From: Amylibacter sp. SFDW26
GTDB lineage: Bacteria; Pseudomonadota; Alphaproteobacteria; Rhodobacterales; Rhodobacteraceae
NCBI RefSeq assembly: GCF_009184395.1
Contig: NZ_WEIC01000006.1
Location: forward strand, 1 to 64,000
Direction of reading: 5' to 3'
Length of the DNA: 64,000 nucleotides
In this document: in pieces, positions 20,212-49,746 of the stretch
Numbering within the stretch: the stretch's first letter is position 1
Layout: each line of letters begins with the position of its first letter
Translations under genes and position numbers: made by a program
Notes under the pieces: model-generated
The model's database searches: none
Told to the model about the DNA's origin: nothing
The model's input: the letters and a program-made list of their open reading frames with translations, nothing else

Positions 20212-20224
20212 GTCGTAAGCCTCT

Positions 20225-20243
20225 GGGGGACATTTGGGGGACA
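20225..20243 (+). repeat. Right arm-type integrase site candidate
   Basis: GGGGGACATTTGGGGGACA just upstream of the integrase start. It is similar to the tandem units at 386-410 and in the same orientation. It also overlaps the likely int promoter region, so int could repress itself. Confidence 0.55.
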
Positions 20244-20407
20244 AAATATTCTGGCTTGTGGTGGATGCTTATGGACAACTATGCACACTTTGTGCTTGGG
20301 GTACAACTCTATATTATCTTTATTTTATTATATGTTGCATGGTTTCTTAGCTAGCTATGGACGTATATGGACAACCATGTACAAACCCTAAAATGTACAG
20401 GCTTTCT

Positions 20408-20458
20408 GTCTCCAAAACCGAGGGTCGTGGGTTCGAGTCCCTCAGCCCCTGCCAAAGT
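20408..20458 (+). repeat. attR: right 51-bp direct repeat (tRNA-Trp 3' fragment)
   Basis: Identical to 274-324. It lacks the 5' half of the tRNA, so it is not a gene. It marks the right end of the island. Confidence 0.95.
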
Positions 20459-20977: not shown

Positions 20978-22219
20978 ATGATGTGTAATATAAGTATTAA
21001 GGTAGTATCTGGAGCTATTCTATTTGGTATTTTGACTGGTGACTTTGCATATGCTGGATCACGTAAACCAATCAAATCACCTTTGGTTTTTGACCTTATA
21101 ACGCGTAAAAAAACAAGGATCGTAGTAAATGATTACCTGTCATTCTCAGGAAGCGTTGGGGTTTCATATTTACGCGAACGTAATCTGAAACTAGATGATT
21201 TGGTGAATGATGAAGTGAGCCAATATAAGGCTGTTATGGAGATAGTCGGCCGTGCTGAATTATCTGAAAAGCTCATCGCATTTACGCATTTAGAGTTTGG
21301 TTTGAAAGGTAAAGACACGCATATAAAGTCATATGGTGTGAAGTCAGATATCCGTGCCAAGGAAGCCTTCTTAGCCTATCAGTTTGCAAGAAATACTACA
21401 TTGTCTTTTGGGCGCATAAGGCTTTCGGATAAGAATAAATGGGTCGCGGATAAAGCTGTTGATGGTATTCATTACGGGCGACGCTTACAAAACTCTGGGT
21501 TTGAGTTTGCAATTTTCAAAGATGATGATGGAAACAATAGTTCATATGTGTTGGCTCATTATACGAGGTTTCAAAATAAGCAAGCAGCAGGAATATATGC
21601 GATTGCACAACGTGTAGAGTTAGAAACCAATGGGCACATTATTGGCTATGTTAATAATCAGAGAAATAAACGTTTTAAGTATACTGCAAATATTGCGGGT
21701 ACCTTTAGCAATGCACAATCAGCTGCGCGAAACGGTTTTGGATTTGATTTCCGTGCGACACAAAGGATTGGCCAACATAAGTTAAACCCACAAATCACAT
21801 ATGGGTTAGCGGTTGGTTCTAAAGGATTTCGTCAAACGGGTTTAGAAAGCAATAAAACAAAAGATGGTGGGCAAACTTTATGCCACCGTTACGGTTTTGT
21901 GTATCAACCTGATTTGACGAACATGGCTGTGGCTTCGGTTGGATTTGCTGTGCGGCCTAGTAAAACCTTTTCAATTGATTTGAATACTTATGCTTATGCG
22001 CAAGTCAGTAAGCAGGCGACAACTCCTGCGGCACGCATTTCGGGAGTTACTACAGGTCGCTCTGCATTCTTAGGCGCAGAAGTCAGTCTTATTGGTGCAT
22101 GGCGCCCAACAAAAAAGGCGAAAGTTGAGTTCGGTATTGGCGTGTTTCAAGCTGGTTCAGCATATCAAAACAAATCGTCATCAAAGCGCATTTATTTGCG
22201 CGCTACCCGCTATTTCTAG
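20978..22219 (+). CDS. algE: Alginate export outer-membrane porin (AlgE-like)
   Basis: 413 aa. Signal peptide ends near FAYAGS (about residue 26). The rest is a beta-barrel with alternating strands and terminal aromatic (ATRYF). Landmarks of the alginate export family are present: KEAFLAYQFARNTTLSFGRIRLSDKNKWVADKAVDGI, then GFEFAIFKDDD. In Pseudomonas AlgE is the anion-selective channel through which alginate leaves the cell. Here it heads an algE-F-I-J-X operon. GAGAGG lies before the ATG pair; ATG at 20981 is possible too. Confidence 0.8.
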   Translation: MMCNISIKVVSGAILFGILTGDFAYAGSRKPIKSPLVFDLITRKKTRIVVNDYLSFSGSVGVSYLRERNLKLDDLVNDEVSQYKAVMEIVGRAELSEKLIAFTHLEFGLKGKDTHIKSYGVKSDIRAKEAFLAYQFARNTTLSFGRIRLSDKNKWVADKAVDGIHYGRRLQNSGFEFAIFKDDDGNNSSYVLAHYTRFQNKQAAGIYAIAQRVELETNGHIIGYVNNQRNKRFKYTANIAGTFSNAQSAARNGFGFDFRATQRIGQHKLNPQITYGLAVGSKGFRQTGLESNKTKDGGQTLCHRYGFVYQPDLTNMAVASVGFAVRPSKTFSIDLNTYAYAQVSKQATTPAARISGVTTGRSAFLGAEVSLIGAWRPTKKAKVEFGIGVFQAGSAYQNKSSSKRIYLRATRYF

Positions 22220-22229
22220 GAGTTTAGGT

Positions 22230-22823
22230 ATGAAAAATATTATGATCACTATTTGTTGCGTTTTGACTTTGGTAACACCGTTTAAAGCATTGGCTAATGA
22301 TGAAGCATTATATGCAGCGGCTCCTCCGAGTGATGCAAGTTTTGTGCGCTTCATTGGGTTTGATGCAGATGAAGCTGTCCAGTTTGCAGGCAAGGCTTTT
22401 AGGATGAGGGCAGATGAAGCGGGTGCATATGTACCAGTATCGTCGAGCCGACTAGATAACGTTCCTATGGGTTCATTCTATAGCCTTTTAAAGAAGGCAG
22501 ATAGTTCTGTTGTTGTTATTCAAGAAGAGGCGCCGGGTGATCCTGCAAAGGTCACTTTGACGCTTTTGAACGGTTCTGACCAACCTTTAACTCTTGGGGT
22601 GGCTGATGGGTCTATGAATGTGATTTCCAATATAGCTACATCATCTTCAGGCCAGCGTGCGGTGAATCCAATTGCAATTGAATTAGGTGTGTTTAACGCA
22701 AAAGACAAAAGTCTCATGGCTAAGTTTGATGTCGCATTGCGCCGTGGGCAAAATGTAACCTTTTTCGCTGATGCCAGCGGTGTTCGTATGATCGAAGATC
22801 GTTTTGGCGCGAACGCTGAATAG
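22230..22823 (+). CDS. algF: Alginate O-acetylation protein AlgF
   Basis: 197 aa from ATG 22230 (AGGAG 8 nt upstream). Signal peptide to about ALANDEA. The mature part matches AlgF through LYAAAPPSDASFVRF, LLNGSDQPLTLGVADGS and QRAVNPIAIELGVF. AlgF is a periplasmic protein needed with AlgI and AlgJ for acetylating mannuronate residues. It lies 10 nt after algE and 10 nt before algI, as in a tight operon. Confidence 0.85.
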   Translation: MKNIMITICCVLTLVTPFKALANDEALYAAAPPSDASFVRFIGFDADEAVQFAGKAFRMRADEAGAYVPVSSSRLDNVPMGSFYSLLKKADSSVVVIQEEAPGDPAKVTLTLLNGSDQPLTLGVADGSMNVISNIATSSSGQRAVNPIAIELGVFNAKDKSLMAKFDVALRRGQNVTFFADASGVRMIEDRFGANAE

Positions 22824-22832
22824 GAGGTCGAT

Positions 22833-24230
22833 ATGATTTTTTCCAGTTCGATTTTTATCTTTGGGTTTCTACCGCTATTTTTAATTGTTTATTATTGCAC
22901 TCCGAAACAAGGGAAATCATGGGCTATTCTGTTAGGTAGTTATGCATTCTATGGCTGGTGGCGTGTTGATTACTTAGTGTTAATCTTTGGCATATCATTG
23001 CTAAGTTATTTTGCTGCCCAAATTGCATATAATGCGAAGACTGAGGTGAAGAAAAAATGGGCTGTTCGCATTGGTGTGACTTTTGATTTAATCGTCCTTG
23101 GATATTTCAAATATACAATGTTTTTTATGTCTGGACTTAGTGACTTGTCTCTGGCGCTTGGTGGCGGTTCGATGAGCATTCCCGCAATTATATTACCAAT
23201 TGGGATCAGCTTTCATACATTCCAATCGATTAGTTACATCATTGATGTTTCTAGAGAGGATGCACCACCCGCACGCCGCTTAGTTGATTTTTTAGCCTTT
23301 GGCTCATTGTTCCCACAGCTAATTGCGGGTCCAGTTTTGCGGTATAAAGATCTAGCAGATCAGTTTGAAACCCGCACCCACACAGTGGAAAAATTTACGC
23401 AAGGTATTGTGCGATTTACCCAAGGCTTGGCAATGAAATGTTTGATAGCGGATAATGTCGCGCCATTAGCCGATCGCATGTTCAATTTATCTGCGCCAAC
23501 TGGAGCAGAAGCGTGGTTGGGTGCTGTCGCATACTCTATTCAACTGTTGTTCGATTTTGCAGGATATTCTGCAATGGCAATTGGTTTGGGACTGATGATT
23601 GGTTTCAAATTCATTGAAAACTTTAATGCCCCTTATGTGAGCCTGTCTATTACAGAGTTTTGGCGCCGGTGGCACATCAGCCTGTCACATTGGTTGCGGG
23701 ACTATTTATATGTGCCTTTGGGTGGAAACCGTAAAGGAAAAGTGCGTACGTATATCAATCTCATGTTGACGATGGTCTTGGGTGGGTTTTGGCATGGCGC
23801 AAATTGGACATTCCTTGTCTGGGGTGCATGGCATGGATTATGGCTTGCTATCGAACGTATGCTTGGTGTGAAAACAGGCGCGCCTATGTGGCCGCGTTTT
23901 TTAGCTTGGCCAATGACGGCTTTGATTGTGATCCTTGGTTGGGTCGTATTTCGCGCAGCGACAATCGAGGATGCCTTAACAATGTACAGTGGAATGATTG
24001 GGTTGAACGGGTGGGCTGTTTCTCTTGATCAAGTTTGGCAAATTCAACCAACAGAGATTTGTATGTTGTTAATTGGTGGCATGATAAGTGTTTGGGGTCC
24101 TGCAATTAAAAGTATTATGCATAATACACCGCAATCCTTGCGACTGGGATCAACCGCCGCACTATTTGCAATCGCAACGTCTTCGATGTTTGCACAATCT
24201 TATTCACCTTTTTTGTATTTCCAGTTTTAG
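22833..24230 (+). CDS. algI: Alginate O-acetyltransferase AlgI (MBOAT)
   Basis: 465 aa, multi-pass (about 11 segments). Starts with MIFSSSIFIFGFLPLFL, the AlgI/DltB-type opening, and has the MBOAT catalytic His321 in LGGFWHGANWTFLVWG and the conserved LSITEFWRRWHISLSHWLRDY block. It passes acetyl groups across the inner membrane to AlgJ/AlgX. Length matches Pseudomonas AlgI. GGAGG stands 6 nt before ATG, and algJ follows after 10 nt. Confidence 0.95.
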   Translation: MIFSSSIFIFGFLPLFLIVYYCTPKQGKSWAILLGSYAFYGWWRVDYLVLIFGISLLSYFAAQIAYNAKTEVKKKWAVRIGVTFDLIVLGYFKYTMFFMSGLSDLSLALGGGSMSIPAIILPIGISFHTFQSISYIIDVSREDAPPARRLVDFLAFGSLFPQLIAGPVLRYKDLADQFETRTHTVEKFTQGIVRFTQGLAMKCLIADNVAPLADRMFNLSAPTGAEAWLGAVAYSIQLLFDFAGYSAMAIGLGLMIGFKFIENFNAPYVSLSITEFWRRWHISLSHWLRDYLYVPLGGNRKGKVRTYINLMLTMVLGGFWHGANWTFLVWGAWHGLWLAIERMLGVKTGAPMWPRFLAWPMTALIVILGWVVFRAATIEDALTMYSGMIGLNGWAVSLDQVWQIQPTEICMLLIGGMISVWGPAIKSIMHNTPQSLRLGSTAALFAIATSSMFAQSYSPFLYFQF

Positions 24231-24240
24231 GGGAAATGAT

Positions 24241-25281
24241 ATGGATCGTTTAAAAAATAAATATCAACAAGCTTTCTGTAGTGCCTTTTTAATTGGGGTC
24301 GTAACGTTAGGTTTGTTTAGTCATGAAAATATGAAACCGCATGGGAGCGCATCGGTTCTTACAGGAAAACTTCAGGGTTTATATGAAGATGGTTTTAGTG
24401 CTTCTAATCCTTTACGCCAGTCATCCGTAAATATTTGGGGTGCGTTTAAATATGCGATTCTAGGTCAAGCTTCTAATGGTGCAATTGTTGGTCGTGATGA
24501 TTGGCTCTTTACAACAGAAGAATTGTCTTATGAACCTGATCAGGTTTCAAATTTGGATGCGTCAGTTCAAGAAATTATAAACGTATATGCAGAGTTGCAA
24601 GATCGCGAAATTAAACTAATACCTGTAATCGTTCCAGATAAGGCGCGTGTTTACGAAGAAAAGCTAAAGCATGTTCGTGGTGAAGAGGTTTCGAACAGAT
24701 ATTATACATTAATATCTAAGCTGAACGACAATAAGATTGCTACGATATCTGGATTGTCTCCGTTGGAGCGCAATAAATCTATTGCGGATGTTTTCATGCG
24801 TGACGATACACATTGGTCACCGTTTGGCGCGAAAACTGTGGCGAGACATATAGCTGACTACATTCAGCCAGGGGCGTTTGACCTAGTTCAAGTGAAAACG
24901 AAGCAGATTGATACTAAAATTTTTGACGGCGACTTATTGAAGTATGTACCAACGGGTTTTTTGCGACCCTATGTTGGCCCAGCTCAAAATACGATCGAGC
25001 GCTTTGAAACCACCGTGCAAAATAATGCCAGTCTTTTTGGTAATACTGCAATAGACGTCGTACTTGTTGGAACCAGCTTTAGTGCTAAATCTGATTGGCA
25101 TTTTGAAGGTTTTCTTAAGCAAGCTTTATCCGTTGATATTTTAAATATGTCGCAAGAAGGAAAGGGACCCTTCGCCCCAATGCGTGATTATTTGAAATCA
25201 GACACTTTCGAAAACACCCCTCCAAAACTGATCATCTGGGAAATTCCAGAACGATATACAACACAGGATTTACCAAAATGA
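24241..25281 (+). CDS. algJ: Alginate O-acetyltransferase AlgJ-like
   Basis: 346 aa from ATG 24241 (AGGGGAAA upstream). An N-terminal signal anchor (about 10-28) is followed by an SGNH-like domain with Asp189-x-His191 (RDDTHWS) and Ser279 (GTSFS), the catalytic triad arrangement of AlgJ/AlgX. The protein transfers acetyl groups to polymannuronate in the periplasm. Stop overlaps the algX start by 4 nt (ATGA). Confidence 0.85.
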   Translation: MDRLKNKYQQAFCSAFLIGVVTLGLFSHENMKPHGSASVLTGKLQGLYEDGFSASNPLRQSSVNIWGAFKYAILGQASNGAIVGRDDWLFTTEELSYEPDQVSNLDASVQEIINVYAELQDREIKLIPVIVPDKARVYEEKLKHVRGEEVSNRYYTLISKLNDNKIATISGLSPLERNKSIADVFMRDDTHWSPFGAKTVARHIADYIQPGAFDLVQVKTKQIDTKIFDGDLLKYVPTGFLRPYVGPAQNTIERFETTVQNNASLFGNTAIDVVLVGTSFSAKSDWHFEGFLKQALSVDILNMSQEGKGPFAPMRDYLKSDTFENTPPKLIIWEIPERYTTQDLPK

Positions 25282-26573
25282 GACAGCTAATTTTAACTGC
25301 GATACTATCAACCGCTATATGTGCACCAATTGTGCAGGCTGCGCCATATTGTGATGCATTAATGAAGATTGAGGCGCTTCCTAAAAAATATCAAAAGAAA
25401 GGGCCGTTTTATTCGGATATGGACCAGGGATGGATTATTGCGAATGATCAACTGGTTAACGATTTTGAGTTTAATGCAGAAGCAAGCGCTCTTATGACTA
25501 AAATAGCGGAGGCGTTTCAAGACCGTGGCGTAAAGCTCGTATTAGCTGTGCCTCCTCCGCGCCCGTTATTCATGGATGTATCAATTGATGGTTATGACCG
25601 AGAGAAAGCGACTGCGAGCTTTCAATCATACTTGAAAAGTATTTCTGCAACAGGCGTTTTTGCAGCCGATCTATTATCCCCAATGAAAGCATCATTGGGG
25701 CAAGGCGCATATTTTTCGCGTGATACACACTGGACGCCTAAGGGTGCTGCTTTTGCTGCTTTCAGTTTAATACAACAGATTGGAAAGCTTGATGATCTTG
25801 AAAAAAAATTCCTTGGTTTGAAGTTTTTAGAACTGTATTCTGAGAAAGGATCTCTTACAGCTGTTGTAGATAAAACATGCAAAACTACGCTCAAGCCTGA
25901 GGGCGTAATGTCGGCGAGTTTTACCCAAAAAGGGAACGCATCTGATTTGTTATCAGATTTATCCGATGATGCACAAAAAGTTGCTCTTGCTGGAACCAGT
26001 TTTTCAAACCGCTATGGACGCGATGTATACCGCTTTAGTGATGCCTTATCATTTGCACTTAATTCAGAGGTTGATAATTACTCTGTTTCTGGTGGCGGGA
26101 TTATCAGTGCTATAGAAGCACTTATCTTAAGTGATGCTTTCCAGAAAGGCACTTATCATACTGTTATCTGGGAAGTGCCATATACACAGAACCTATCTGA
26201 TACGCATAGCTTAAGACAAATCTTAGGAGCGTTACGACTATCTGACGATGACAAACCTGTAGAAATATTTAAGGGTACAGCCAATTCAGGTTGGCAGTCT
26301 GTTTCGCTGTCTGTGAACATTTCAGAAGTTTTAATTCTTCAAATCATTACTGACAGTGCGAATCTGAAAGAAGTAGAGGTTGAACTTTATAGCCAAGAGA
26401 ATGAGAAAACGCGCATAAAATTACGAAAGTCAAATCGTGTCCCTTTGGAACTACAATCAGATATTTGGTCAGCATCTTTAGAAGGGCTAGGTGTTTCTGT
26501 AGTGAAAAAGATGAAGCTTAGATTGAAGGGCGCTAAATCCAGCCAAAACCTGTCTGCACACTTAATAAATTAA
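25278..26573 (+). CDS. algX: AlgX-like alginate acetyltransferase with C-terminal sugar-binding region
   Basis: 431 aa. Signal peptide to about VQAAPYC. SGNH-like domain with RDTHWTPKGA (Asp149-x-His151) and GTSFS (Ser241). A C-terminal beta-rich part (about 325-430) follows, in the place of the AlgX carbohydrate-binding module. It also has Cys25 and Cys201 that may pair. AlgX acetylates the polymer and is part of the export complex in Pseudomonas. ATGA overlap with algJ ensures coupling. Confidence 0.82.
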   Translation: MRQLILTAILSTAICAPIVQAAPYCDALMKIEALPKKYQKKGPFYSDMDQGWIIANDQLVNDFEFNAEASALMTKIAEAFQDRGVKLVLAVPPPRPLFMDVSIDGYDREKATASFQSYLKSISATGVFAADLLSPMKASLGQGAYFSRDTHWTPKGAAFAAFSLIQQIGKLDDLEKKFLGLKFLELYSEKGSLTAVVDKTCKTTLKPEGVMSASFTQKGNASDLLSDLSDDAQKVALAGTSFSNRYGRDVYRFSDALSFALNSEVDNYSVSGGGIISAIEALILSDAFQKGTYHTVIWEVPYTQNLSDTHSLRQILGALRLSDDDKPVEIFKGTANSGWQSVSLSVNISEVLILQIITDSANLKEVEVELYSQENEKTRIKLRKSNRVPLELQSDIWSASLEGLGVSVVKKMKLRLKGAKSSQNLSAHLIN

Positions 26574-26596
26574 AATTTTAAGACTAAAGGATAGGA

Positions 26597-26626
26597 CGAC
26601 TATACTTTGGTATAGTCGCCTATACT
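26597..26626 (+). promoter_or_regulatory. Shared palindrome, copy 2; also a hairpin after algX
   Basis: CGACTATAC-TTTG-GTATAGTCG is a 9-bp perfect stem, followed by CCTATACTG. It resembles copies at 20859, 29774 and 32922 and lies about 80 nt before the next gene, whose leader has AAGTGAGAGAT at 26681-26691. It could act as a weak terminator, an operator, or both. Confidence 0.5.
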
Positions 26627-26698
26627 GCTGCGCAATTATAATGTTTACAATTGGATGGTAGTTACAAAGAAATCCAAACCAAGTGAGAGATGGTTACT

Positions 26699-27214
26699 AT
26701 GACAGTTTTTAAGAAGATTCTTTGTACCGTAACATTTTTGGCTCTTAGCCAATCAAATGTATTTGCCGATGAAATGCCGCGCCCTTCTGGGGAAGTACTT
26801 TTAACGCTTTCTGGTGAGATTGCGAATACAAATACGGATGATGGTCGTTTAGAATTGGATTTAGCAATGCTTCAGGCTATGCCTGTTACGAGCTTTAAAA
26901 CGAATACCATCTGGTTAGATAAAGTTGCTGAGTTTACAGGTGTGAGCTTAAAGGCCGTATTAGATTATGCAGGTGCATCTGGCTCGCTTATTCACGCAAT
27001 TGCTTTAAACGATTATAAAGTAGATATTCCAGCAGATACTGCGAATGAGGATGCCCCTATAGTTGCATACCATCTGGATGGTGAAACAATGTCAGCACGA
27101 GATAAGGGGCCTTTATGGGTTGTGTATCCATATGATCAGAACTCAAAATATCGTACAGAAGTGATTTATTCTCGTTCCATTTGGCAATTAGACCGCTTAA
27201 CATCTGTTAAATAA
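26699..27214 (+). CDS. Periplasmic Mo-cofactor-domain-like protein (sensor partner)
   Basis: 171 aa from ATG 26699; the ATG at 26690 touches the ribosome site GAGAGA. Signal peptide ends near NVFADE. The mature part has VLLTLSGEIANT, LDLAMLQAMPVTSFKTNTIWLDKVAEFTGVSLKAVL and the final YSRSIWQLDR. That is the short oxidoreductase molybdopterin-binding layout found beside histidine kinases in Proteobacteria. The Cys that binds Mo in sulfite-oxidase-type enzymes is not seen, so sensing is more likely than catalysis. It lies 6 nt before the hybrid kinase. Confidence 0.65.
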   Translation: MTVFKKILCTVTFLALSQSNVFADEMPRPSGEVLLTLSGEIANTNTDDGRLELDLAMLQAMPVTSFKTNTIWLDKVAEFTGVSLKAVLDYAGASGSLIHAIALNDYKVDIPADTANEDAPIVAYHLDGETMSARDKGPLWVVYPYDQNSKYRTEVIYSRSIWQLDRLTSVK

Positions 27215-27220
27215 CAGCAG

Positions 27221-29767
27221 ATGGAACATCCAAATATGAATGTCAGGCACTCTCTATTTAGACGTGTGTTGCCTTTAAGCGTAATTGCTATTGGTTTGAT
27301 TGTTCTACTGGTTTTGTTCCAAAATATTACGACACGTTTGGCTGATTTACGTGAAGCGCCCAATGACAATTTATCTTGGACGCTTTCTCAGGTTGAGGTC
27401 GAGGTTCTCTTATTATCTGATGCAGCATCTTTGGTTGGGGAAGATCCTTCGCAGCTAAAAGATGTGAGACGGCGTTTCAATAACTTATACAGCCGTGTGT
27501 CCCAATTGCGCCAAAGCAGTGTTTTTCAAGCTATGCGTGAAGATCAGCAGTTTTTAAAATATCTTAAGATGCTAGAGTTTTGCACTAAAAAATTAGTAGA
27601 ACCGATAGATTCTAGTGATGATGTGCTTCTCACAAAAATCCCAGATGTTCTGAAAGAACTTCGAAAAGTTCGAGGTATAGCACACGATATTGCTTTGACA
27701 GGTATTCGGTTGAACGCAGAAGAGACTGATGCAGAAAGAGCAGATTTTACTGACTTGCTAGTTATTGCTGCTGTCGTTTCTGCGGCATTGATTGGTTTGT
27801 TGGTCATTATTTCGTACTTCCTTTTTCGACAGCATAAAAAATCACAAGAAGTTTCAGCCGCCATTGAACGGGCGAGTACACGTTTGAAATCCAGTTTTGA
27901 CACATCCCTTGATGCAATTGTGGTTGCGAATACAAATGGTGAGATCATGGAATTCAATGAAGCAGCAGAAACTGTATTTGGATATTCAGCGACTGAAGCA
28001 GTTGGTGCTCAAATGGCGGATCTGATTATCCCCCCGCAATACCATGAAGCCCACCATGCTGGTATGAAGCGCTTTAATGATACCAAGTCTCCTAAGCTGG
28101 TTGGTCAAGGGCGGATCGAAATTACAGCATTACGTAAAAGTGGTGAAGAGTTTCAAATTGAAATTGCTATCGGGCACGCAGAGGATGAGAACGGTTCAAT
28201 TTTCGTGGCCTATATTCGCGACATTACAGACCGTCTTGCTGCAGAAGAAGAATTACGCATTGCGCGCGATAAAGCATTGGATGCTGATAAAGCAAAATCA
28301 AACTTTCTCGCTGTAATGAGTCATGAAATGCGCACACCATTGAATGGGTTGTTTGGAACAATTGAGTTATTGCAGGAGACGAGGCTTTCGAAAAAGCAGA
28401 CTGAATATATAGGCTTAGCTAAAAATTCTAGTGATATTCTTTTACATCATGTGAATGATGTTTTGGACGTGTCCCGATTGGATGCAGCTAAGATGGATTT
28501 ATCGCCAAAGTCATTTGATCTTAAAAAGTTTTTTGAAAATATCATTACGACAAACCAAACGACGGCATATTCAAAGAAAAACCAATTAAGTTTAGAACTT
28601 GGAAACATGCCTGATCGAAATGTCTGGATGGATGATCATCGTTTACGGCAAATTGCTTATAACCTGATCGGAAATGCACTTAAGTTTACAACTGGTGGAC
28701 AGGTCAAAGTGAAAGCTCATGTTACATCTGGATTAGAACTTGTCTTTTCAGTATCGGATACAGGAATAGGTATTTCCGAAGATAATATAGAGCATGTTTT
28801 CGAAGAGTTTTATACGCAAGATAAATCCTATGATCGTATGGCATCTGGTGTGGGCCTTGGGCTTGCTATCTGTAAACGCATTGTTGATTTAATGGGTGGT
28901 GAAATATCTCTTGAAAGCTCTCTTGGAAATGGGACAAAGTTCACTGTCGTTGTTCCATTGCTTTTGGATGATAAAGTGAAAGAGATCATTGAGATTATAC
29001 CGACAAGTTATGACCCTAAAATACTAAAAGCGCGTAGGATTCTTCTTGTGGAAGATAATGATATCAACAGGCATATCGTTCGTGAGATGTTGGAAAAAGA
29101 TGGGGTTATAATCACTGAGGCGACGAACGGTTTAGAAGCTGTTCAAATGGCGGAGGAACAAAAATACGATCTCATCTTGATGGATGTGAGTATGCCTGTA
29201 ATGAATGGTATCGATGCGACAAAAGAAATCCGCAATTCTGGTGGTTTGTCGGCTGAAGTTCCAATTTTAGGCTTAACGGCGCATGCTTTGCCAAGAGAGC
29301 ACGAAAAATTTATTACGGCAGGAATGGATGCGTGCCTTTGCAAGCCTATATCGCATGAAATTTTGGCCTTTAATATTGAAGGCTTACTGACTGCAAAATC
29401 AAGAGGGCGATCTATAGCTGGTCAAGAAAATGCGCCATACTATCTGAATTCTAATATAGTATCGGAAGTCAAAGATGCACTTGGTGATGAAAAGTTTAAG
29501 AATATATTAAATGATTTCCAAATTGAAATTGATGGACTCATCAAGTCAATACCTCAACTTATTGATGCGAGTGATTATAATGAACTGGCGGCTGCTACAC
29601 ATAAATCTGTAGGTTCTTCTGGGGTTTTAGGTGCAGAATGTCTGCAGGATAGTTTACGTGTCATTGAAGATGCTGCAAAAACAAATGCCAAAGATGCAAT
29701 CATATCGGAACATTCTAATCTTTCAGATATTTGGCGTATTACCTTCGAACAACTAAAGGCGCTCTAA
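27221..29767 (+). CDS. Hybrid sensor histidine kinase (PAS-HisKA-HATPase-REC-HPt)
   Basis: 848 aa. Two membrane helices (about 17-35 and 183-205) enclose a periplasmic helical domain; a PAS domain follows (about 225-345, SLDAIVVANTNGEIMEFNEAA). The kinase core has His368 (SHEMRTPLNG) and an ATP site with NLIGNALKF and GVGLGLAIC. The receiver has Asp655 (LILMDVSMPVMNG). A C-terminal HPt carries His794 (THKSVGSSG). All phosphorelay residues are present. The periplasmic partner gene is 6 nt upstream. It lies between the two halves of the alginate cluster and probably controls it. A start at 27236 is also possible. Confidence 0.93.
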   Translation: MEHPNMNVRHSLFRRVLPLSVIAIGLIVLLVLFQNITTRLADLREAPNDNLSWTLSQVEVEVLLLSDAASLVGEDPSQLKDVRRRFNNLYSRVSQLRQSSVFQAMREDQQFLKYLKMLEFCTKKLVEPIDSSDDVLLTKIPDVLKELRKVRGIAHDIALTGIRLNAEETDAERADFTDLLVIAAVVSAALIGLLVIISYFLFRQHKKSQEVSAAIERASTRLKSSFDTSLDAIVVANTNGEIMEFNEAAETVFGYSATEAVGAQMADLIIPPQYHEAHHAGMKRFNDTKSPKLVGQGRIEITALRKSGEEFQIEIAIGHAEDENGSIFVAYIRDITDRLAAEEELRIARDKALDADKAKSNFLAVMSHEMRTPLNGLFGTIELLQETRLSKKQTEYIGLAKNSSDILLHHVNDVLDVSRLDAAKMDLSPKSFDLKKFFENIITTNQTTAYSKKNQLSLELGNMPDRNVWMDDHRLRQIAYNLIGNALKFTTGGQVKVKAHVTSGLELVFSVSDTGIGISEDNIEHVFEEFYTQDKSYDRMASGVGLGLAICKRIVDLMGGEISLESSLGNGTKFTVVVPLLLDDKVKEIIEIIPTSYDPKILKARRILLVEDNDINRHIVREMLEKDGVIITEATNGLEAVQMAEEQKYDLILMDVSMPVMNGIDATKEIRNSGGLSAEVPILGLTAHALPREHEKFITAGMDACLCKPISHEILAFNIEGLLTAKSRGRSIAGQENAPYYLNSNIVSEVKDALGDEKFKNILNDFQIEIDGLIKSIPQLIDASDYNELAAATHKSVGSSGVLGAECLQDSLRVIEDAAKTNAKDAIISEHSNLSDIWRITFEQLKAL

Positions 29768-29773
29768 GTCATA

Positions 29774-29798
29774 TATCCTTTTGGATACAGGCCTATAC
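29774..29798 (+). promoter_or_regulatory. Shared palindrome, copy 3 (upstream of alg44)
   Basis: TATCCTTTTGGATA, a perfect 14-nt palindromic unit, then CAGGCCTATAC. It aligns with copies at 20859, 26601 and 32922 and lies about 125 nt before the alg44 start, with AAGTGAGAG at 29862-29870. Confidence 0.5.
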
Positions 29799-29851
29799 GT
29801 ATTAGATTCTGCCTGCCCTCTTGGGCTAAAGCTCTCAATTGTGATTCCATG

Positions 29852-29896
29852 TACATTTTAAAAGTGAGAGATACTGGGTAACCAGTATAAAATGTA
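29852..29896 (+). promoter_or_regulatory. Structured 5' leader of alg44
   Basis: ATACTGG (29871-29877) pairs with CCAGTAT (29882-29888) around a GTAA loop, and TACATTTTA pairs with TAAAATGTA outside it. It ends a few bases before the AGGAGA ribosome site, so it could influence translation. Confidence 0.4.
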
Positions 29897-29911
29897 TGCA
29901 GGAGACGGCCT

Positions 29912-31339
29912 ATGAACATTCGCCATGAATGTCCAATGCCCGACCTATCTTTTAGGGTTACAGCCCCGTTGTATTTACATGCACCGGATGGGCAAACACA
30001 TACAATTGACCGTTGGTCATTGACTGGTTTTATCCTTGATGGATTTGAAGGTGATTTACCCGAAGGTTTATATCTGTCTGTTCCATTTCAAGGGATTGAT
30101 ATAAAATTCCCTATTGATGTCATACCTCTGGACGAGGAAGGCGGTTTCTCATTCACCAATCTAACAGTTCGCCAGCGTGAAACACTTTCGATGTTTTATA
30201 AAGGTATTTTGACTGGCCGTATGGTTTCTACTTCGGAAATGATTACAAGCCTTGATACGCCCGTTGATTTGGTTCCCATGGGAGAAACCGAAAGAGAAAT
30301 GGCATCAGGTATGGCTAAGACTAGGCCTCGGATATTACGTATTATTTGGAATGTTGTTTTTTACATTTCATTGGCTGTGTTTTTATTCGGATTTGTTGGA
30401 AACCAGATATGGAAACGCCTTTCAGTGTTAGAACTTGATCATGGGCGTTTTGTTGCGCCTATCATTACCTATCAAGCTCCTGAATCTGCATATATCCAAA
30501 AAATATTAGTCAAAGAAGGGGATAATGTTTCCGCTGGAGATATCCTGGTACGCTTGGAAGACCCAGATCGTGAAGGTCAGGTTGAAGAGGTGCGCACAGA
30601 GATACGAATTGCCGAACGACGCTTAAACCAAGCTCAGGTGCAATTGGATAAACATATTGCAAGGTTGGATGAGTTTAGGCAGCCTTATTGGGATGCTTTT
30701 TATTACCTATGGTATCCTTGGGATCAATCGGAGCATCTGTATGATGATTATCCACAAGACGTTCAAAAAGCATGGGATATTGTGAAGCGTTTTGATGAAG
30801 GACAGATGCTTCAACCGGGGAGTTATCATGATATTCGACAAGCTTTGCAACGGCGAGTGGATGAATATTATTTGGATTTACGGCGCTGGAAACGAGATTT
30901 AAGCAATAAGAAAGCTGCTGCTGATGAACTGCATGTCATTGCACGTACAGATGGTATCGTGTCTTCTGTTCCCGTTCTTCAAGGTAGCTTCGCAAGTCGT
31001 TCAGAAACTGTTGTCGAAGTAGAAGAAAATACGCCGCGTGTTGCCATTGGTTGGTTGGACGACCGTATGGTGAGTAGTGTGTATATCGGAATGCCGGCAA
31101 CCGTTTCATATTCGTTCCGTGGGCAATCGAAATCTATCACAGGTACAATAATAGATTTGCAAGCAGGTAGTGATGAAGTTCAGCCTGATAAATTTGGGAT
31201 GGTTATAACGATTAAAGCAGATGATTCTGGGTTGAAGAAAACACGCAAATGGTTTCGGCATAATGCGCCCGCTGGTATTCGACTTCACCGTAAGCTCTTT
31301 TTTGATTTTACAGGGAGTGGCGATAATGAAAGCACCTGA
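29912..31339 (+). CDS. alg44: Alg44-like PilZ/HlyD-type polymerase partner
   Basis: 475 aa. N-terminal PilZ-like domain (about 10-110), one transmembrane helix (about 145-165), then a periplasmic membrane-fusion-like part with a lipoyl-like strand set (SAYIQKILVKEGDNVSAGDILVRLEDP), a helical hairpin and a second half-lipoyl region (ARTDGIVSSVPVLQG). This is the architecture of Alg44, which binds c-di-GMP and activates Alg8. The PilZ signature looks degenerate here: RxxxR is not seen, and RWSLTG replaces (D/N)xSxxG. Start overlaps none; AGGAGA ribosome site. alg8 overlaps its end by 14 nt. Confidence 0.78.
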   Translation: MNIRHECPMPDLSFRVTAPLYLHAPDGQTHTIDRWSLTGFILDGFEGDLPEGLYLSVPFQGIDIKFPIDVIPLDEEGGFSFTNLTVRQRETLSMFYKGILTGRMVSTSEMITSLDTPVDLVPMGETEREMASGMAKTRPRILRIIWNVVFYISLAVFLFGFVGNQIWKRLSVLELDHGRFVAPIITYQAPESAYIQKILVKEGDNVSAGDILVRLEDPDREGQVEEVRTEIRIAERRLNQAQVQLDKHIARLDEFRQPYWDAFYYLWYPWDQSEHLYDDYPQDVQKAWDIVKRFDEGQMLQPGSYHDIRQALQRRVDEYYLDLRRWKRDLSNKKAAADELHVIARTDGIVSSVPVLQGSFASRSETVVEVEENTPRVAIGWLDDRMVSSVYIGMPATVSYSFRGQSKSITGTIIDLQAGSDEVQPDKFGMVITIKADDSGLKKTRKWFRHNAPAGIRLHRKLFFDFTGSGDNEST

Positions 31340-32909: not shown

Positions 32910-32920
32910 ACACGCAGTAT

Positions 32921-32942
32921 GTATACTTTGGGATATACGGCC
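32921..32942 (+). promoter_or_regulatory. Shared palindrome, copy 4 (upstream of algA)
   Basis: TATACTTTGGGATATA then CGGCC, about 105 nt before the algA start. AAGTGAGAAG lies at 33016-33025, close to the ribosome site. Matches copies at 20859, 26601 and 29774. Confidence 0.5.
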
Positions 32943-33042
32943 TGATCTGTTGAGCCCATTACTGTTCTCTTGCACGCCCGCACCTCTTCATGATGTCATC
33001 TATAACAAACTTACAAAGTGAGAAGTGTAAGGAGAAAATAAA

Positions 33043-34470
33043 ATGATTTACCCAGTAATCCTATGTGGTGGTAGCGGAACAAGGTTGTGGCCTTTGTCAC
33101 GCAAAAGCTATCCAAAGCAATTTGCAAATCTGTCTGGTGATACAAGCCTGTTCCAAGAAACGTTAAAGCGTGTTCAAGATGATAGGTTTGAAGCACCAAT
33201 TCTAATGACGAATTCTGATTACCGTTTTACGGTACAAGAACAAGCAGAAGGCGTTGGTGTAACGAACCCTTCTATTATTATTGAGCCAGAAGGTCGTAAT
33301 ACAGCACCTGCTATATTGTCGGCGGCCCTTAAACTTGAAAATCAGCCAGATGCGGTCATGCTAGCTATGCCATCTGATCATTTGATTAAAGACACACATG
33401 CGTTTTCTATGGCAATTGAAACGGCTTATTCAGCAGCACAAGCTGGTAAATTGGTAACATTTGGAATTAAGCCAACCCGCGCAGAGATTGGTTATGGCTA
33501 TTTAGAAGTTGCCGATAGAATTGGGTATGAACATGCATCTGCATTGCCTTTAAGTGCTTTTGTTGAAAAGCCAAATACTGAGAATGCAGAAATTTATGTA
33601 GACTCTGGTCGCTACCTTTGGAATGCGGGAATTTTCATGTTTAAGGTTGCTGATATCCTCGAGGCCTTTGAGGTGCTTGCTCCGAAATTGATGATGCCTT
33701 GTCGTCGAGCTGTATCAAGCGGTGTAAAAGATTTAGGTTTCTTCCGCCTAGGCCAAGAAGCATATAAATCCGCAGAGGAAATTTCTATAGATTACGCAAT
33801 TATGGAGTTGTGCGAAACATTATCTGTTGTGCCAATGGATTGCGGGTGGAGCGATATGGGCAGCTGGAGTTCTGTATGGGAAGAAGGCGACGCCGATGAA
33901 AATGGTGTCGTTGAAAACGGCTCAACGACTGCAATTGATTGTGAAAACACATTGCTCAGATCTGAAACTGACGGTGTAGAGTTGATTGGCCTTGGGTTGA
34001 AAAACATTACGGCGATTGCAATGGGCGACGCCGTTTTGGTCGCAGATATTAGCCAATCAGAAAATGTAAAAAATGCGGTTCAAAAACTAAAAATTAAGAA
34101 AGCAAAACAAGCAGAGACATTCCCACGTGATCATCGCCCATGGGGGTATTTTGAAACACTTTCGCTAGGTGAAAGATTTCAAGTTAAACGGATTGTTGTG
34201 CAACCAGGTGCCGCACTTTCATTACAAAGCCATGTACATAGATCAGAGCATTGGATCGTTGTACAGGGATCAGCAAATGTCACAGTGAATGAAGACATAA
34301 AATTAGTGTCAGAAAATGAATCAATTTATATTCCACTTGGTGCAATTCACCGGATGGAAAACCCGGGGAAAGTGCCTTTACACCTGATCGAAGTTCAAAC
34401 AGGCGCATACTTAGGCGAAGATGATATTGTGAGATATGAAGATATCTATGCCCGAGATACAGCAGCATAA
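33043..34470 (+). CDS. algA: Mannose-1-phosphate guanylyltransferase / mannose-6-phosphate isomerase
   Basis: 475 aa, full length for the bifunctional family. N-terminal nucleotidyltransferase motif CGGSGTRLWPLSRKSYPKQF and FVEKP; C-terminal cupin-type isomerase domain with HRPWGYFETL, PGAALSLQSHVHRSEHW and IPLGAIHRMENPG. It makes GDP-mannose from mannose phosphates, the precursor for AlgD. AAGGAG ribosome site 8 nt before ATG. A strong terminator follows, so algD has its own promoter. A general manC role cannot be excluded, but the position argues for polymer synthesis. Confidence 0.93.
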   Translation: MIYPVILCGGSGTRLWPLSRKSYPKQFANLSGDTSLFQETLKRVQDDRFEAPILMTNSDYRFTVQEQAEGVGVTNPSIIIEPEGRNTAPAILSAALKLENQPDAVMLAMPSDHLIKDTHAFSMAIETAYSAAQAGKLVTFGIKPTRAEIGYGYLEVADRIGYEHASALPLSAFVEKPNTENAEIYVDSGRYLWNAGIFMFKVADILEAFEVLAPKLMMPCRRAVSSGVKDLGFFRLGQEAYKSAEEISIDYAIMELCETLSVVPMDCGWSDMGSWSSVWEEGDADENGVVENGSTTAIDCENTLLRSETDGVELIGLGLKNITAIAMGDAVLVADISQSENVKNAVQKLKIKKAKQAETFPRDHRPWGYFETLSLGERFQVKRIVVQPGAALSLQSHVHRSEHWIVVQGSANVTVNEDIKLVSENESIYIPLGAIHRMENPGKVPLHLIEVQTGAYLGEDDIVRYEDIYARDTAA

Positions 34471-34504
34471 TTATAAAAAGAACATACACTCTCACACCAA
34501 CTTT

Positions 34505-34531
34505 AACGGCCCTTCGGGGCCGTTGTTTTTT
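34505..34531 (+). terminator. Rho-independent terminator after algA
   Basis: AACGGCCC-TTCG-GGGCCGTT with a stable UUCG tetraloop and a following TGTTTTTT tract. Confidence 0.93.
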
Positions 34532-34668
34532 GTCCTTCCATATGTGTAGCCATTACTAACCAAAAGGATAGTGATCTACTGCGAAGTATTTAAAAACTAT
34601 ACGAGCCAGACAAAGAATATATTAAAACAATTAGTTACCTTCATCTTAAGAAAATGAAGGATAATAAA

Positions 34669-36069
34669 ATGCTTGATAATGCTGCCAACCAAAGACTGTT
34701 CGCGACTGCGCAACCACTACGCCTTGTCGAAGAAAAACCCTCCATTAGTGTTGTTGGACTAGGATACGTAGGAGCGGTTTCTACCGCATGCCTATCCAGT
34801 CTAGGACATCAAGTTATCGGTGTGGATATCGATATGGATAAGGTCGATTGCATCGCCAATGGTGTTTCACCTATTCATGAAAAAGACCTAGGTAAACTGT
34901 TGCACGAAGGCCTTACCGAAGGTTTGGTTTCTGCAACGAATGATCTTAGGCAAGCCGTTATTGATACTGATGTTACGTTCGTGTCGGTTGGCACGCCAAC
35001 TGCGGCGGATGGTGGGTGTGATTATTCTTATATTGATGCGGCCGCTCGCTCTATTGGTGAAGGCATTAAATTAAAAAACGACTTCCATGTAATTGTTATG
35101 AGATGCTCAATCCCTCCAGGCGTCACTATGGGTTTTATGGCCCCGATTATTGAGGAAGTTTCAGGGTTGAAAGCTGGCGTTGATTTTGGCGTATGCTTTA
35201 ACCCAGAGTTCTTGCGCGAAGGCGTTGCCGTTGAGGATTTTTATGCACCGCCAAAAACGGTTATTGGTGCTGATGATCCTAAATCTGCTCGTATCCTATC
35301 TCGCATCTATGAAGCCGTTGATGAAAAACCAATCATCACCTCTGTAGAAACGGCTGAGATGGTAAAATACGTAGATAACGTATGGCACGCGACCAAGGTA
35401 TGTTTTGCAAATGAAGTCGGGAGACTTTGCAAACCACTTGGCGTTGACAGTCACGCAGTCATGGATGTCTTCGTGCAAGATACGAAGCTTAATCTGTCAC
35501 CGTATTACCTGAAACCTGGGTTTGCGTTTGGTGGTTCATGCCTTCCAAAAGAAGTGCGTGCAGTTGCACATATTGCGCAACATTTGGGCGTTGATTTGCC
35601 AATGATTAACAGTTTGGGAAAATCGAATGATACTCAAATTGCAGAAGCTTTGAGGATGGCAAAAGAGACTGGTGCGCGTAAAGTCGGTATTCTTGGTTTG
35701 GCATTCAAACCTGGTACGGACGATCTACGTGAAAGTCCAATTCTTGAGGTTATAGCGGCCTTAAATGCTGATGGCGTTAAAGTTACTATTCATGACGCTG
35801 CGATCACCGTTGATACGCCTTTGGCTGGTCAACTTGCATATGTAAGGCATGGCAGCTCTGGCTTGCAGGCTCTTGCAGAAGATTTACCAAAGATGTTGCG
35901 AGACGATGTTTCCGACGTTGTTGAACAATCAGATGCTTTGATCATTACGCATAACAATGAGCTTTATCAAGATGCTGTTCTAACGGCTGGGAATACACCT
36001 GTCATCGATGTTGTACGCCTATTTTCAGACGTACCTCAAACAACAGCTTATTCAGGAATCGGTTGGTAA
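34669..36069 (+). CDS. algD: GDP-mannose 6-dehydrogenase (AlgD)
   Basis: 466 aa from ATG 34669, preferred to 34654 because AAGGATA lies 7 nt upstream. NAD-binding ISVVGLGYVGAVSTACL, central NPEFLREG, catalytic Cys (about residue 291) in FGGSCLPKEVRA, and GLAFKPGTDDLRESP. It oxidises GDP-mannose to GDP-mannuronate, the committed step of alginate synthesis. The UDP-glucose dehydrogenase family is the alternative, but the ALG-cluster context and the algA neighbour favour AlgD. It has a N-terminal extension of about 25 aa. The RTX gene follows after 27 nt. Confidence 0.88.
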   Translation: MLDNAANQRLFATAQPLRLVEEKPSISVVGLGYVGAVSTACLSSLGHQVIGVDIDMDKVDCIANGVSPIHEKDLGKLLHEGLTEGLVSATNDLRQAVIDTDVTFVSVGTPTAADGGCDYSYIDAAARSIGEGIKLKNDFHVIVMRCSIPPGVTMGFMAPIIEEVSGLKAGVDFGVCFNPEFLREGVAVEDFYAPPKTVIGADDPKSARILSRIYEAVDEKPIITSVETAEMVKYVDNVWHATKVCFANEVGRLCKPLGVDSHAVMDVFVQDTKLNLSPYYLKPGFAFGGSCLPKEVRAVAHIAQHLGVDLPMINSLGKSNDTQIAEALRMAKETGARKVGILGLAFKPGTDDLRESPILEVIAALNADGVKVTIHDAAITVDTPLAGQLAYVRHGSSGLQALAEDLPKMLRDDVSDVVEQSDALIITHNNELYQDAVLTAGNTPVIDVVRLFSDVPQTTAYSGIGW

Positions 36070-38309: not shown

Positions 38310-38339
38310 GATGCTGGTCAAAAGAGGCCAGCATCTTTT
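38310..38339. terminator. Bidirectional terminator between RTX gene and response regulator
   Basis: GATGCTGG and CCAGCATC form an 8-bp stem followed by TTTTG. It overlaps the stop codon of the convergent response regulator. Confidence 0.75.
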
Positions 38340-42958: not shown

Positions 42959-42981
42959 TTAATCGCTTTAAATAGATACTG

Positions 42982-43007
42982 ATCTGCGCGGGATATCTCG
43001 CGCAGAT
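42982..43007 (+). terminator. Intercistronic hairpin between the two cargo genes
   Basis: ATCTGCGCG and CGCGCAGAT form a 9-bp stem with loop GGATATCT. The tail is AT-rich but lacks a pure T run. It probably lowers expression of the downstream genes or protects the upstream message. Confidence 0.6.
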
Positions 43008-43065
43008 TTATATAATAAAAAAATATTTTGAGGCCGAGTAACCAATATTTAAAACGAGGGTTATT

Positions 43066-45075: not shown

Positions 45076-45096
45076 TTATATTATTTGGAGAATAAA

Positions 45097-49738: not shown

Positions 49739-49746
49739 ATTTTGTG

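What the first reader, a model, noticed from the sequence alone, without database searches (positions are those of the whole stretch)
20978..36069. Alginate-type biosynthesis cluster in an alphaproteobacterium, reorganised
algE, F, I, J, X, alg44-like, alg8, algA and algD lie together but in an order quite unlike Pseudomonas (algD-8-44-K-E-G-X-L-I-J-F-A) and in several transcription units. I know of no experimentally characterised alphaproteobacterial alginate producer, so the polymer may be new or different in fine structure.
Basis: partly seen in the sequence, partly recalled or inferred. Interest (0 to 1): 0.8.

Follow-up and report, generated by a model that had tools for sequence, protein, structure and literature searches.

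The report
Roseobacter mannuronan synthase gene cluster
A marine bacterium carries an intact but unusual set of genes for an alginate-like sugar polymer, apparently without the enzymes that turn it into true alginate and with altered control and export parts, so it may make nearly pure mannuronan.

Summary
In detail: algE, F, I, J, X, alg44, alg8, algA and algD lie at 20978-36069, with a molybdopterin-domain-like protein and a hybrid kinase among them and an RTX protein and LuxR regulator after them. The order is not a local scramble: other roseobacters share it. The core alg44-alg8-algD-RTX recurs in Rhodobacterales; acetylation genes and AlgE are optional.

It is alginate-type (AlgD matches GDP-mannose dehydrogenase; AlgE is predicted to fold like AlgE) but not a canonical alginate system. 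AlgG (epimerase), AlgK and AlgL (lyase) were not found in the window or 87 related stretches (23 of them short), nor in the own genome. Alg8 forms its own deep clade. Alg44 lacks the c-di-GMP-binding RxxxR motif (missing in 77 of 85 clade rows; one change on the tree) and carries a long adaptor hairpin that Pseudomonas-type Alg44 nearly lacks.

Most likely product: O-acetylated mannuronan, made without c-di-GMP gating, with a Ca-binding RTX partner. A 2015 review says no mannuronan-producing organism had been identified. Product chemistry, c-di-GMP independence and export route are inferred, not shown.

The parts
20978..22219 (+). algE: outer-membrane alginate exporter, predicted 18-strand barrel
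   Evidence: PF13372 58.4 bits; profile finds PDB AlgE at E 2.8e-36; model pLDDT 78, fold match to 3rbh TM 0.70
22230..22823 (+). algF: periplasmic acetylation accessory protein
   Evidence: PF11182 65.3 bits; start chosen
22833..24230 (+). algI: MBOAT acetyl donor transporter
   Evidence: PF03062 115 bits; the only MBOAT match in the genome; 50-55% to AlgI of L153-L155; DltB model far below cut-off (171 of 375 bits)
24241..25281 (+). algJ: SGNH acetyltransferase, DTH and GTS motifs aligned
   Evidence: best solved match AlgJ 4o8v E 1.1e-42
25278..26573 (+). algX: SGNH acetyltransferase, DxH and GTS motifs aligned
   Evidence: best solved match AlgX 7ula E 2.5e-21, AlgJ second at 9.7e-18
26690..27214 (+). 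small protein with oxidoreductase molybdopterin-binding-type domain, no cysteine after residue 30; neighbour of the kinase gene
   Evidence: PF00174 28.7 bits over cut-off 24; no Cys in the last 130 residues of 34 of 34 homologues
27221..29767 (+). hybrid histidine kinase (PAS, HisKA, HATPase, receiver, Hpt)
29912..31339 (+). alg44: co-polymerase with PilZ-like domain, TM helix and membrane-fusion domain
   Evidence: HlyD_3 44.5 bits; model pLDDT 86.8; fold matches EmrA, MacA
29957..30214 (+). PilZ-like domain of Alg44 lacking the RxxxR motif
   Evidence: strands and helix at residues 16-101; aligned to canonical Alg44 PilZ, motif letters D/R and R.S..G; no Pfam PilZ hit
30563..30925 (+). long alpha-hairpin of Alg44
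   Evidence: helices 218-250, 252-272, 282-295, 305-338; 29 and 24 residues there in Alg44 of L154 and L158, but 86 and 85 in L156 and L157
31326..32909 (+). alg8: GT2 polymerase, own deep clade
   Evidence: PF13641 96 bits; tree; DGD and GDDK motifs aligned
33043..34470 (+). algA: mannose-6-phosphate isomerase / GDP-mannose pyrophosphorylase
   Evidence: TIGR01479 586 bits, above cut-off
34504..34525 (+). terminator-like hairpin with T tail between algA and algD
   Evidence: 9 pairs, 6 G-C, TTTTTT
34654..36069 (+). algD: GDP-mannose 6-dehydrogenase
   Evidence: PDB 1mfz 397 bits; next best UDP-glucose dehydrogenase 284
36097..38301 (+). RTX Ca-binding protein; N-terminal choice-of-anchor L domain (36337-36990), clade motif YDxxGxR[YF]DxxGxxL (37240-37284)
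   Evidence: PF00353 241 bits, NF038133 117 bits over cut-off 27; motif in 45 of 73 RTX proteins and in no non-RTX ORF of the 80 loci
38318..38932 (-). LuxR-type response regulator, conserved neighbour, likely partner of the hybrid kinase
   Evidence: PF00072 and PF00196; present in 39 of 57 full-flank related loci

Best explanation
This is a synthase-dependent exopolysaccharide system that makes O-acetylated mannuronan (poly-beta-1,4-D-mannuronate), a variant of the alginate pathway. Steps inferred from homology: AlgA, a phosphomannomutase-family enzyme elsewhere in the genome, and AlgD make GDP-mannuronate; Alg8 polymerises it; AlgI, J, X and F acetylate it in the periplasm; AlgE passes it through the outer membrane. 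Alg44 is not gated by c-di-GMP and, through its long hairpin, takes over the bridging that AlgK does in Pseudomonas. No enzyme that turns mannuronate to guluronate and no AlgL-type lyase was found. The kinase and the LuxR regulator control expression, and the Ca-binding RTX protein, if secreted, binds or holds the polymer outside the cell. Shown by sequence: gene identities, genes not found, motif loss, conserved neighbourhood; the hairpin is a structure prediction. Inferred: product chemistry, c-di-GMP independence, export route, RTX role.
For: AlgD, AlgA, AlgI, AlgJ, AlgX, AlgE identities; phosphomannomutase-family matches at 2 places in the genome. AlgG not found in 6 of 6 clade genomes searched, found in 3 of 3 controls; AlgG, AlgK and AlgL not found by tblastn in the window, the 80 loci or the stretches of 7 further clade genomes, but AlgG and AlgL found in reference clusters and in L044, a locus of the window's class; PF05426 lyase and PF13229 beta-helix not found in the own genome. 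The RxxxR pair is missing in 77 of 85 clade Alg44 rows and kept in 4 of 4 outside rows; one change on the Alg8 tree. Review passages: Alg44 mutants that cannot bind c-di-GMP stop alginate production in P. aeruginosa. RTX in 52 and algD in 51 of 57 full-flank loci; RTX-type R-modules bind alginate (review passages). Only 1 GGDEF match in the own genome.
Against: No product has been isolated. Alg8 of this clade is 34-35% identical to Alg8 of L153-L155 and lies apart from it; an Alg8 relative in L156 sits beside a dehydrogenase only 33% like AlgD and a PL14 lyase, so Alg8 alone does not fix the sugar. 6 of 57 loci lack algD and 19 of 57 lack algA nearby. Single-sequence searches can miss distant epimerases; secreted epimerase A-modules were not sought genome-wide; AlgL was sought genome-wide only in the own genome. 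26 of 85 clade rows keep the second arginine, the window among them. Other genomes without RxxxR have many GGDEF domains (13 in G061, 11 in L060's genome), so a low GGDEF count is not general. No PilZ structure is among the 50 fold matches shown, and Pfam found no PilZ. L156 and L157 also have a fairly long hairpin stretch while keeping RxxxR. Hairpin docking was not tested. Only 2 of 33 genomes of the genus carry the Alg8.
Confidence: 0.58

Rival explanations
1. Ordinary alginate: the same polymer with guluronate, epimerised by an enzyme encoded elsewhere and too distant for the searches used here.
For: The supply, polymerisation, acetylation and AlgE export steps are encoded; most producers encode more than one epimerase (review passages).
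Against: AlgG not found in 6 of 6 clade genomes with 3 of 3 controls positive; PF13229 not found in the own genome; no epimerase family reported in 10 of 10 RTX proteins scanned.
Confidence: 0.2
2. A different polymer: the divergent Alg8 clade uses GDP-mannuronate together with, or instead of, another sugar, or AlgD serves another product.
For: Deep separate clade; an Alg8 relative in L156 lies with a dehydrogenase 33% like AlgD, a PL14 lyase, a PF05426 lyase and a Sel1 protein; 6 of 57 loci lack algD nearby.
Against: A single glycosyltransferase gene in the cluster; AlgD clearly on the GDP-mannose side; algD present in 51 of 57 full-flank loci.
Confidence: 0.17
3. The system is c-di-GMP-controlled after all, through other residues of the PilZ-like domain or through a diguanylate cyclase acting on transcription.
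For: A PilZ-like fold is predicted; S and G of DxSxxG are mostly kept (68 and 65 of 78 rows); the second arginine is kept in 26 of 85 rows; GGDEF proteins exist in 11 of 11 genomes checked.
Against: The first arginine is kept in 8 of 85 clade rows only, and in no Rhodobacterales row with letters there; the tree needs one change.
Confidence: 0.2
4. A decayed or silent cluster kept by chance.
For: Patchy: 2 of 33 genomes of the genus, own included, carry it; several of those genomes are incomplete.
Against: Open reading frames throughout; motifs aligned in AlgJ, AlgX, Alg8 and AlgD; Alg8 92% identical in G009 with the same order.
Confidence: 0.05

Closest known systems
Pseudomonas/Azotobacter alginate operon (algD-8-44-K-E-G-X-L-I-J-F-A)
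   Same: AlgD, AlgA, Alg8, Alg44, AlgE, AlgX, AlgI, AlgJ and AlgF homologues; GDP-mannuronate supply and acetylation machinery
   Different: no AlgK, AlgG or AlgL found; Alg44 without RxxxR and with a long hairpin; different order; RTX protein, molybdopterin-domain-like protein, hybrid kinase and LuxR regulator added
'Atypical' alginate operons of the 2020 operon survey (PMC7112194, passages read)
   Same: losses of algKE or parts of the modification genes, and rearrangement, in environmental bacteria
   Different: the main text holds the word Alphaproteobacteria 0 times; the passages shown do not mention RTX or PilZ-motif loss; the supplementary figure was not seen
Azotobacter secreted mannuronan C-5 epimerases AlgE1-7 (A- and R-modules)
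   Same: RTX Ca-binding repeats in a protein tied to an alginate-type system
   Different: no catalytic A-module family found in the RTX proteins scanned; N-terminus is choice-of-anchor L in the window, weak choice-of-anchor C/DUF642 and DUF6923 matches in roseobacters, DUF4114 in others
EmrA/MacA/HlyD membrane-fusion proteins
   Same: barrel-sandwich domain and long alpha-hairpin predicted in Alg44
   Different: Alg44 also has a PilZ-like domain and lies beside a polysaccharide synthase; TolC docking not shown

Membership tests
Canonical alginate biosynthesis system | GDP-mannuronate supply: AlgA and AlgD | tested here: met
   TIGR01479 above cut-off; 1mfz 397 bits against 284 for the next
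Canonical alginate biosynthesis system | Alg8 GT2 polymerase with Alg44 co-polymerase | tested here: met
   both present and overlapping by 14 bases; Alg8 34-35% to L153-L155 but in a separate deep clade; Alg44 gives no blastp match to the reference Alg44 at 1e-3
Canonical alginate biosynthesis system | Alg44 PilZ domain with c-di-GMP-binding RxxxR | tested here: not met
   window has D and R at the two columns; 77 of 85 clade rows lack the pair
Canonical alginate biosynthesis system | AlgK scaffold lipoprotein | tested here: not met
   no match in own genome; none in clade stretches; weak matches in 5 of 5 other clade genomes, E 1e-10 or worse
Canonical alginate biosynthesis system | AlgE outer-membrane exporter | tested here: met
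   seen in 6 of 57 full-flank relatives (a lower bound, since stretches end 10 kb out)
Canonical alginate biosynthesis system | AlgG mannuronan C-5 epimerase | tested here: not met
   with positive controls in 56 and 94
Canonical alginate biosynthesis system | AlgL periplasmic lyase | tested here: not met
   PF05426 not in own genome; no match in clade stretches
Canonical alginate biosynthesis system | AlgI, AlgJ, AlgF, AlgX acetylation machinery | tested here: met
Canonical alginate biosynthesis system | product of 1,4-linked mannuronate and guluronate | not testable with these tools
   needs polymer chemistry
Secreted AlgE-type mannuronan C-5 epimerase (for the RTX protein) | catalytic beta-helix A-module before the RTX repeats | tested here: not met
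   Pfam and NCBIfam scans of 10 RTX proteins, the window's included, report no such family; family scans only
RTX family hemolysin (NF033943) | score above curated cut-off | tested here: not met
   229 of 1000 bits
DltB (for AlgI) | TIGR04091 score above cut-off | tested here: not met
   171 of 375 bits

The most novel reading that the evidence does not exclude
A lineage of marine bacteria makes pure, acetylated mannuronan with a synthase freed from c-di-GMP, spans the periplasm with the Alg44 hairpin itself (docking to AlgE in this strain, and to a general TolC-type channel where AlgE is missing), and replaces the guluronate egg-box by a protein cross-linker: the co-encoded Ca-binding RTX protein gels the polymer.
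Probability: 0.2. Interest if true: 0.8.

Novelty: new variant of a known kind. Interest (0 to 1): 0.6.

Why it matters
[quoted passage not shown] This lineage, scattered through many roseobacter genera, looks like a candidate for that missing organism. It would show which parts of the alginate machine are dispensable (AlgK, AlgG, AlgL, c-di-GMP gating) and offer a natural source of acetylated poly-M; since roseobacters often live with algae (recalled), it could add an alginate-like polymer to the sea. Named cultured strains (Sulfitobacter mediterraneus DSM 12244, Tritonibacter multivorans CECT 7557) carry the version with AlgE, so it can be tested directly.

Tried and rejected
Rejected: (1) 'a scrambled Pseudomonas operon': the order is shared by other roseobacters. 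(2) RTX as Azotobacter-type epimerase or as toxin: no catalytic family reported; hemolysin, serralysin, ZapA and polyurethanase models match far below their cut-offs. (3) AlgD as UDP-glucose dehydrogenase and AlgI as DltB. (4) AlgE as a chance half-match: profile and fold support it. (5) The cluster as cargo of the neighbouring integrative element: its repeats are at 271-324 and 20405-20458, so algE starts about 520 bases outside it. (6) Promoter scan: 33 sites against a shuffle mean of 44.7, no use.

Led nowhere: Alg8 gave no solved-structure match at E 0.01; Alg44 gave only membrane-fusion, biotinyl-domain and unrelated chains (18; best 60 of 132 seen), no Alg44. Ten literature searches listed no paper that I recognised as describing this roseobacter cluster; [quoted passage not shown] No paper was read whole. 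Subscription papers are mostly not in that library.

Rows dropped or partial: 23 of the 80 loci (14 of 10-21.4 kb, 9 shorter) were left out of the 57-locus co-occurrence count, which also used score thresholds of my own; the kinase count includes any kinase above threshold, and the algI count includes 38-39% matches in L132 and L133. L128 gave no Alg44 and L062 none at the motif; 9 of 86 clade Alg44 rows do not reach the hairpin stretch and were not examined further. Trees are the quick method with SH-aLRT support only, with long-branch warnings. Relatives' proteins were read stop to stop, without fixing their start codons. In one search the identity printed for the reference AlgX genes is that of my AlgJ query; one search gives 25-27% for AlgX against L153-L155.

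Full report
What is there. The window is part of contig C9 of a 3.14-Mb genome. No tool names its class; by its nearest named relative for Alg8 (L093, 92%, 'uncultured Rhodobacteraceae bacterium') it is an alphaproteobacterium of the Rhodobacterales. Genes 20978-36069 on the + strand are algE, algF, algI, algJ, algX, then a small protein with a molybdopterin-binding-type oxidoreductase domain and a hybrid histidine kinase, then alg44, alg8, algA and algD. An RTX Ca-binding protein follows algD after 27 bases, and a convergent LuxR-type response regulator follows that. algE-F-I-J-X are spaced by 10, 9, 10 and -4 bases; larger gaps (116, 144, 133, 183) separate the later blocks, and a terminator-like hairpin lies between algA and algD.

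Identity of the parts. AlgD matches solved GDP-mannose 6-dehydrogenase best (397 bits; the next, a UDP-glucose dehydrogenase, 284). AlgA passes its equivalog cut-off. AlgJ matches solved AlgJ best; AlgX matches solved AlgX best, with AlgJ not far behind (80 and 68 bits); both keep the aligned DxH and GTS motifs. AlgE matched Pfam only over its C-terminal half, so I tested it twice: a 10-sequence profile finds PDB AlgE at E 2.8e-36, and the predicted structure (mean pLDDT 78, 18 strands) has AlgE structures as its first 17 fold matches, TM about 0.7. Alg8 keeps the DGD and GDDK motifs of the reference Alg8 proteins.

Comparison with canonical clusters. Against L153-L155 the window's proteins are 44-45% (AlgD), 34-35% (Alg8), 42-43% (AlgA), 50-55% (AlgI), 35% (AlgJ), 25-27% (AlgX) and 24-28% (AlgF) identical; Alg44 gives no blastp match at 1e-3 and AlgE only short ones. 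In a tree of 43 Alg8 proteins the window's clade (23 rows) is one side of a fully supported long branch; canonical Alg8 lies on the other side together with other synthases of the window's class.

A lineage, not a scramble. Among the 80 loci kept (the best 80 of 264 confirmed), the same order from algE (cut at the locus edge) to luxR occurs in L054, L055 (Sulfitobacter mediterraneus), L056, L059 and L093. Tritonibacter multivorans (L060) has algE to the RTX gene but no match for the kinase pair or the LuxR gene. In the 57 loci with both flanks: alg44 57, RTX 52 (35 with the clade motif), algD 51, luxR 39, kinase 38, algA 38, molybdopterin-domain protein 31, algI with algJ 14, algE 6 (algE and acetylation genes further than 10 kb out would be missed). 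On the tree, over 58 rows, algI needs 8 changes, algA 10, the molybdopterin-domain gene 6, luxR 3 and algE 2. So the stable core is alg44-alg8-algD-RTX, with a regulator in most; algA, the acetylation block and the exporter come and go. PF13372 (AlgE) was found genome-wide above cut-off in 7 of 20 genomes (an eighth, G261, below it), and not in the core-only genomes of L107, L100, L113 and L087 nor in those of L103 and L063, which have the acetylation genes. Spread is patchy: 2 of 33 genomes of the genus, and of 385 genomes sampled from the class 23 have any Alg8 relative, 7 of them (own included) of this clade at about 52% identity or more.

What is missing. tblastn with AlgG, AlgK and AlgL of the reference clusters over all fetched DNA finds no match in the window, in the 80 loci (9 of them under 10 kb), or in the stretches of G009, G061, G184, G254, G261, G148 and G394, while it finds AlgG in L044, L046 and L158, and AlgL in L044, L158 and several other distant clusters. 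At genome level AlgG was not found in 6 of 6 clade genomes but in 3 of 3 controls; AlgK was not found in the own genome, and the other five clade genomes show only weak matches (E 1e-10 or worse, 24-30% identity); PF05426 lyases and PF13229 beta-helices were not found in the own genome. These are sequence tests and could miss very distant enzymes.

Alg44. The predicted structure has an N-terminal six-strand barrel with a helix, one long TM-region helix, and a membrane-fusion domain with a long alpha-hairpin (mean pLDDT 86.8); its best fold matches are EmrA and MacA. The PilZ reading of the N-terminus rests on its alignment with canonical Alg44 and on the strand order: Pfam found no PilZ and none is among the 50 fold matches shown. 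The hairpin stretch holds 121 residues here (median 117 in 86 clade rows, of which 9 do not reach it) against 29 and 24 in L154 and L158, but 86 and 85 in L156 and L157, so a long hairpin is not confined to this clade. At the RxxxR columns the window has D and R; both arginines are present in 8 of 85 clade rows (two Roseibium loci, L125, L127, G148, G184, G254, G261) and in 4 of 4 outside rows; the other 77 lack the pair, among them every Rhodobacterales row with letters there. The first arginine is kept in 8 rows, the second in 26. On the Alg8 tree this is a single change (77 rows against 9, one of them L154), and since the outside rows have the motif it is most simply a loss. According to the review passages read, R17 and R21 of P. 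aeruginosa Alg44 serve c-di-GMP binding and mutants that cannot bind make no alginate (PMC8461298). The own genome has one GGDEF match against 52 in the genome of L154, but the clade genomes checked range from 1 to 21. I infer that this synthase is not gated by c-di-GMP; it is not shown.

RTX protein. It has 12 Pfam RTX stretches and an N-terminal choice-of-anchor L domain (117 bits over a cut-off of 27). The RTX protein of the nearest relative (L093) and those of L055, L058, L060, L066 and L107 have instead weak choice-of-anchor C/DUF642 matches, nearly all below cut-off, in four followed by a DUF6923 match above cut-off; three from other families (G254, G148, L133) have DUF4114; L113 and L126 show repeats only. 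A short motif, YDxxGxR[YF]DxxGxxL, is in 45 of 73 RTX proteins and in no non-RTX ORF among the 5,048 catalogued in the 80 loci. Review passages say RTX-type R-modules bind alginate (PMC4444821). A structural, polymer-binding role is the simplest reading, not shown; secretion is assumed from the RTX type.

Mechanism, with status. GDP-mannuronate synthesis: strongly supported by homology; phosphomannomutase-family genes lie elsewhere. Polymerisation to mannuronan by Alg8-Alg44: likely, because it is the only synthase in the cluster. No conversion to guluronate and no AlgL-type clearing: supported by genes not found. Acetylation: likely. Export by AlgE without AlgK: likely here; in relatives without AlgE the exporter is unknown. 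TolC-type (PF02321) matches exist in 6 of 6 genomes checked, which only shows that a docking partner is available. Regulation by the hybrid kinase and LuxR regulator: inferred from linkage (luxR present in 31 of 31 full-flank loci with the molybdopterin-domain gene).

Against what is known. Two reviews read in passages name only Pseudomonas and Azotobacter as shown bacterial producers (PMC3815931; PMC4444821); [quoted passage not shown] A 2020 survey already reports atypical operons that lost algKE or modification genes (PMC7112194, passages), so 'rearranged alginate cluster' alone is not new. New here, as far as the searches listed in Tried and rejected go, are the lineage-wide lack of AlgG/K/L matches, the loss of the c-di-GMP motif, the hairpin-bearing Alg44 in this setting and the RTX partner.

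Verdict. Observation confirmed; interpretation partly supported; a new variant of a known kind. Polymer chemistry would settle it.

Noticed in passing
window 245-20458: An integrative element: tRNA-Trp at 245-320, 54-base repeats (98% identical) at 271-324 and 20405-20458, and a tyrosine integrase at 18982-20244 next to the right repeat; it ends about 520 bases before algE.
   Followed up: partly
window 41498-48436: A likely type I secretion operon: a 486-aa Gln/Asn/Gly-rich repeat protein and a 669-aa protein, both without Pfam match, then ABC transporter and membrane-fusion protein; it might export the RTX or matrix proteins.
   Followed up: no
window 48694-61724: LacI-type regulator, sugar ABC transporter, OprB porin and enzymes that look like sugar-acid catabolism (named from reading the translations; only OprB confirmed).
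   Followed up: no
window 36337-36990 and L093 14762-17482: The RTX protein's N-terminal domain differs between the window and its nearest relative (choice-of-anchor L versus a weak choice-of-anchor C type) although the neighbourhood is the same: perhaps a recent domain swap.
   Followed up: partly
L156 9215-18983 and L157: An Alg8 relative from another class: Alg8-like synthase, Alg44-like with RxxxR, UDP-glucose/GDP-mannose dehydrogenase-family enzyme only 33% like AlgD, and in L156 a PL14 and a PF05426 lyase and a Sel1 protein; perhaps a different polyuronate.
   Followed up: partly
L044 (G172) and L046 (G131): Other genomes of the window's class carry AlgG (and in L044 an AlgL-like lyase) near a canonical-side Alg8, so more ordinary alginate clusters may also exist in this class.
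   Followed up: partly
L063, L064, L065, L070, L071, L103, L105, L125: Acetylation genes algI and algJ without an algE match in the stretch; for L063 and L103 none genome-wide by PF13372 either: exporter unknown.
   Followed up: partly
window 26690-29767: Molybdopterin-domain-like protein and hybrid kinase, a pair that lies on either side of the alg core in relatives; these proteins lack a cysteine in the domain (its usual role as molybdenum ligand is recalled).
   Followed up: partly
L110, L111, L115, L117, L122, L123, L129, L130, L131: Alg44 reading frames that do not reach the hairpin stretch: cut, split or frameshifted, cause not examined.
   Followed up: no
own genome G000: Only one GGDEF match found in a 3.1-Mb genome, and one in congener G009.
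   Followed up: no
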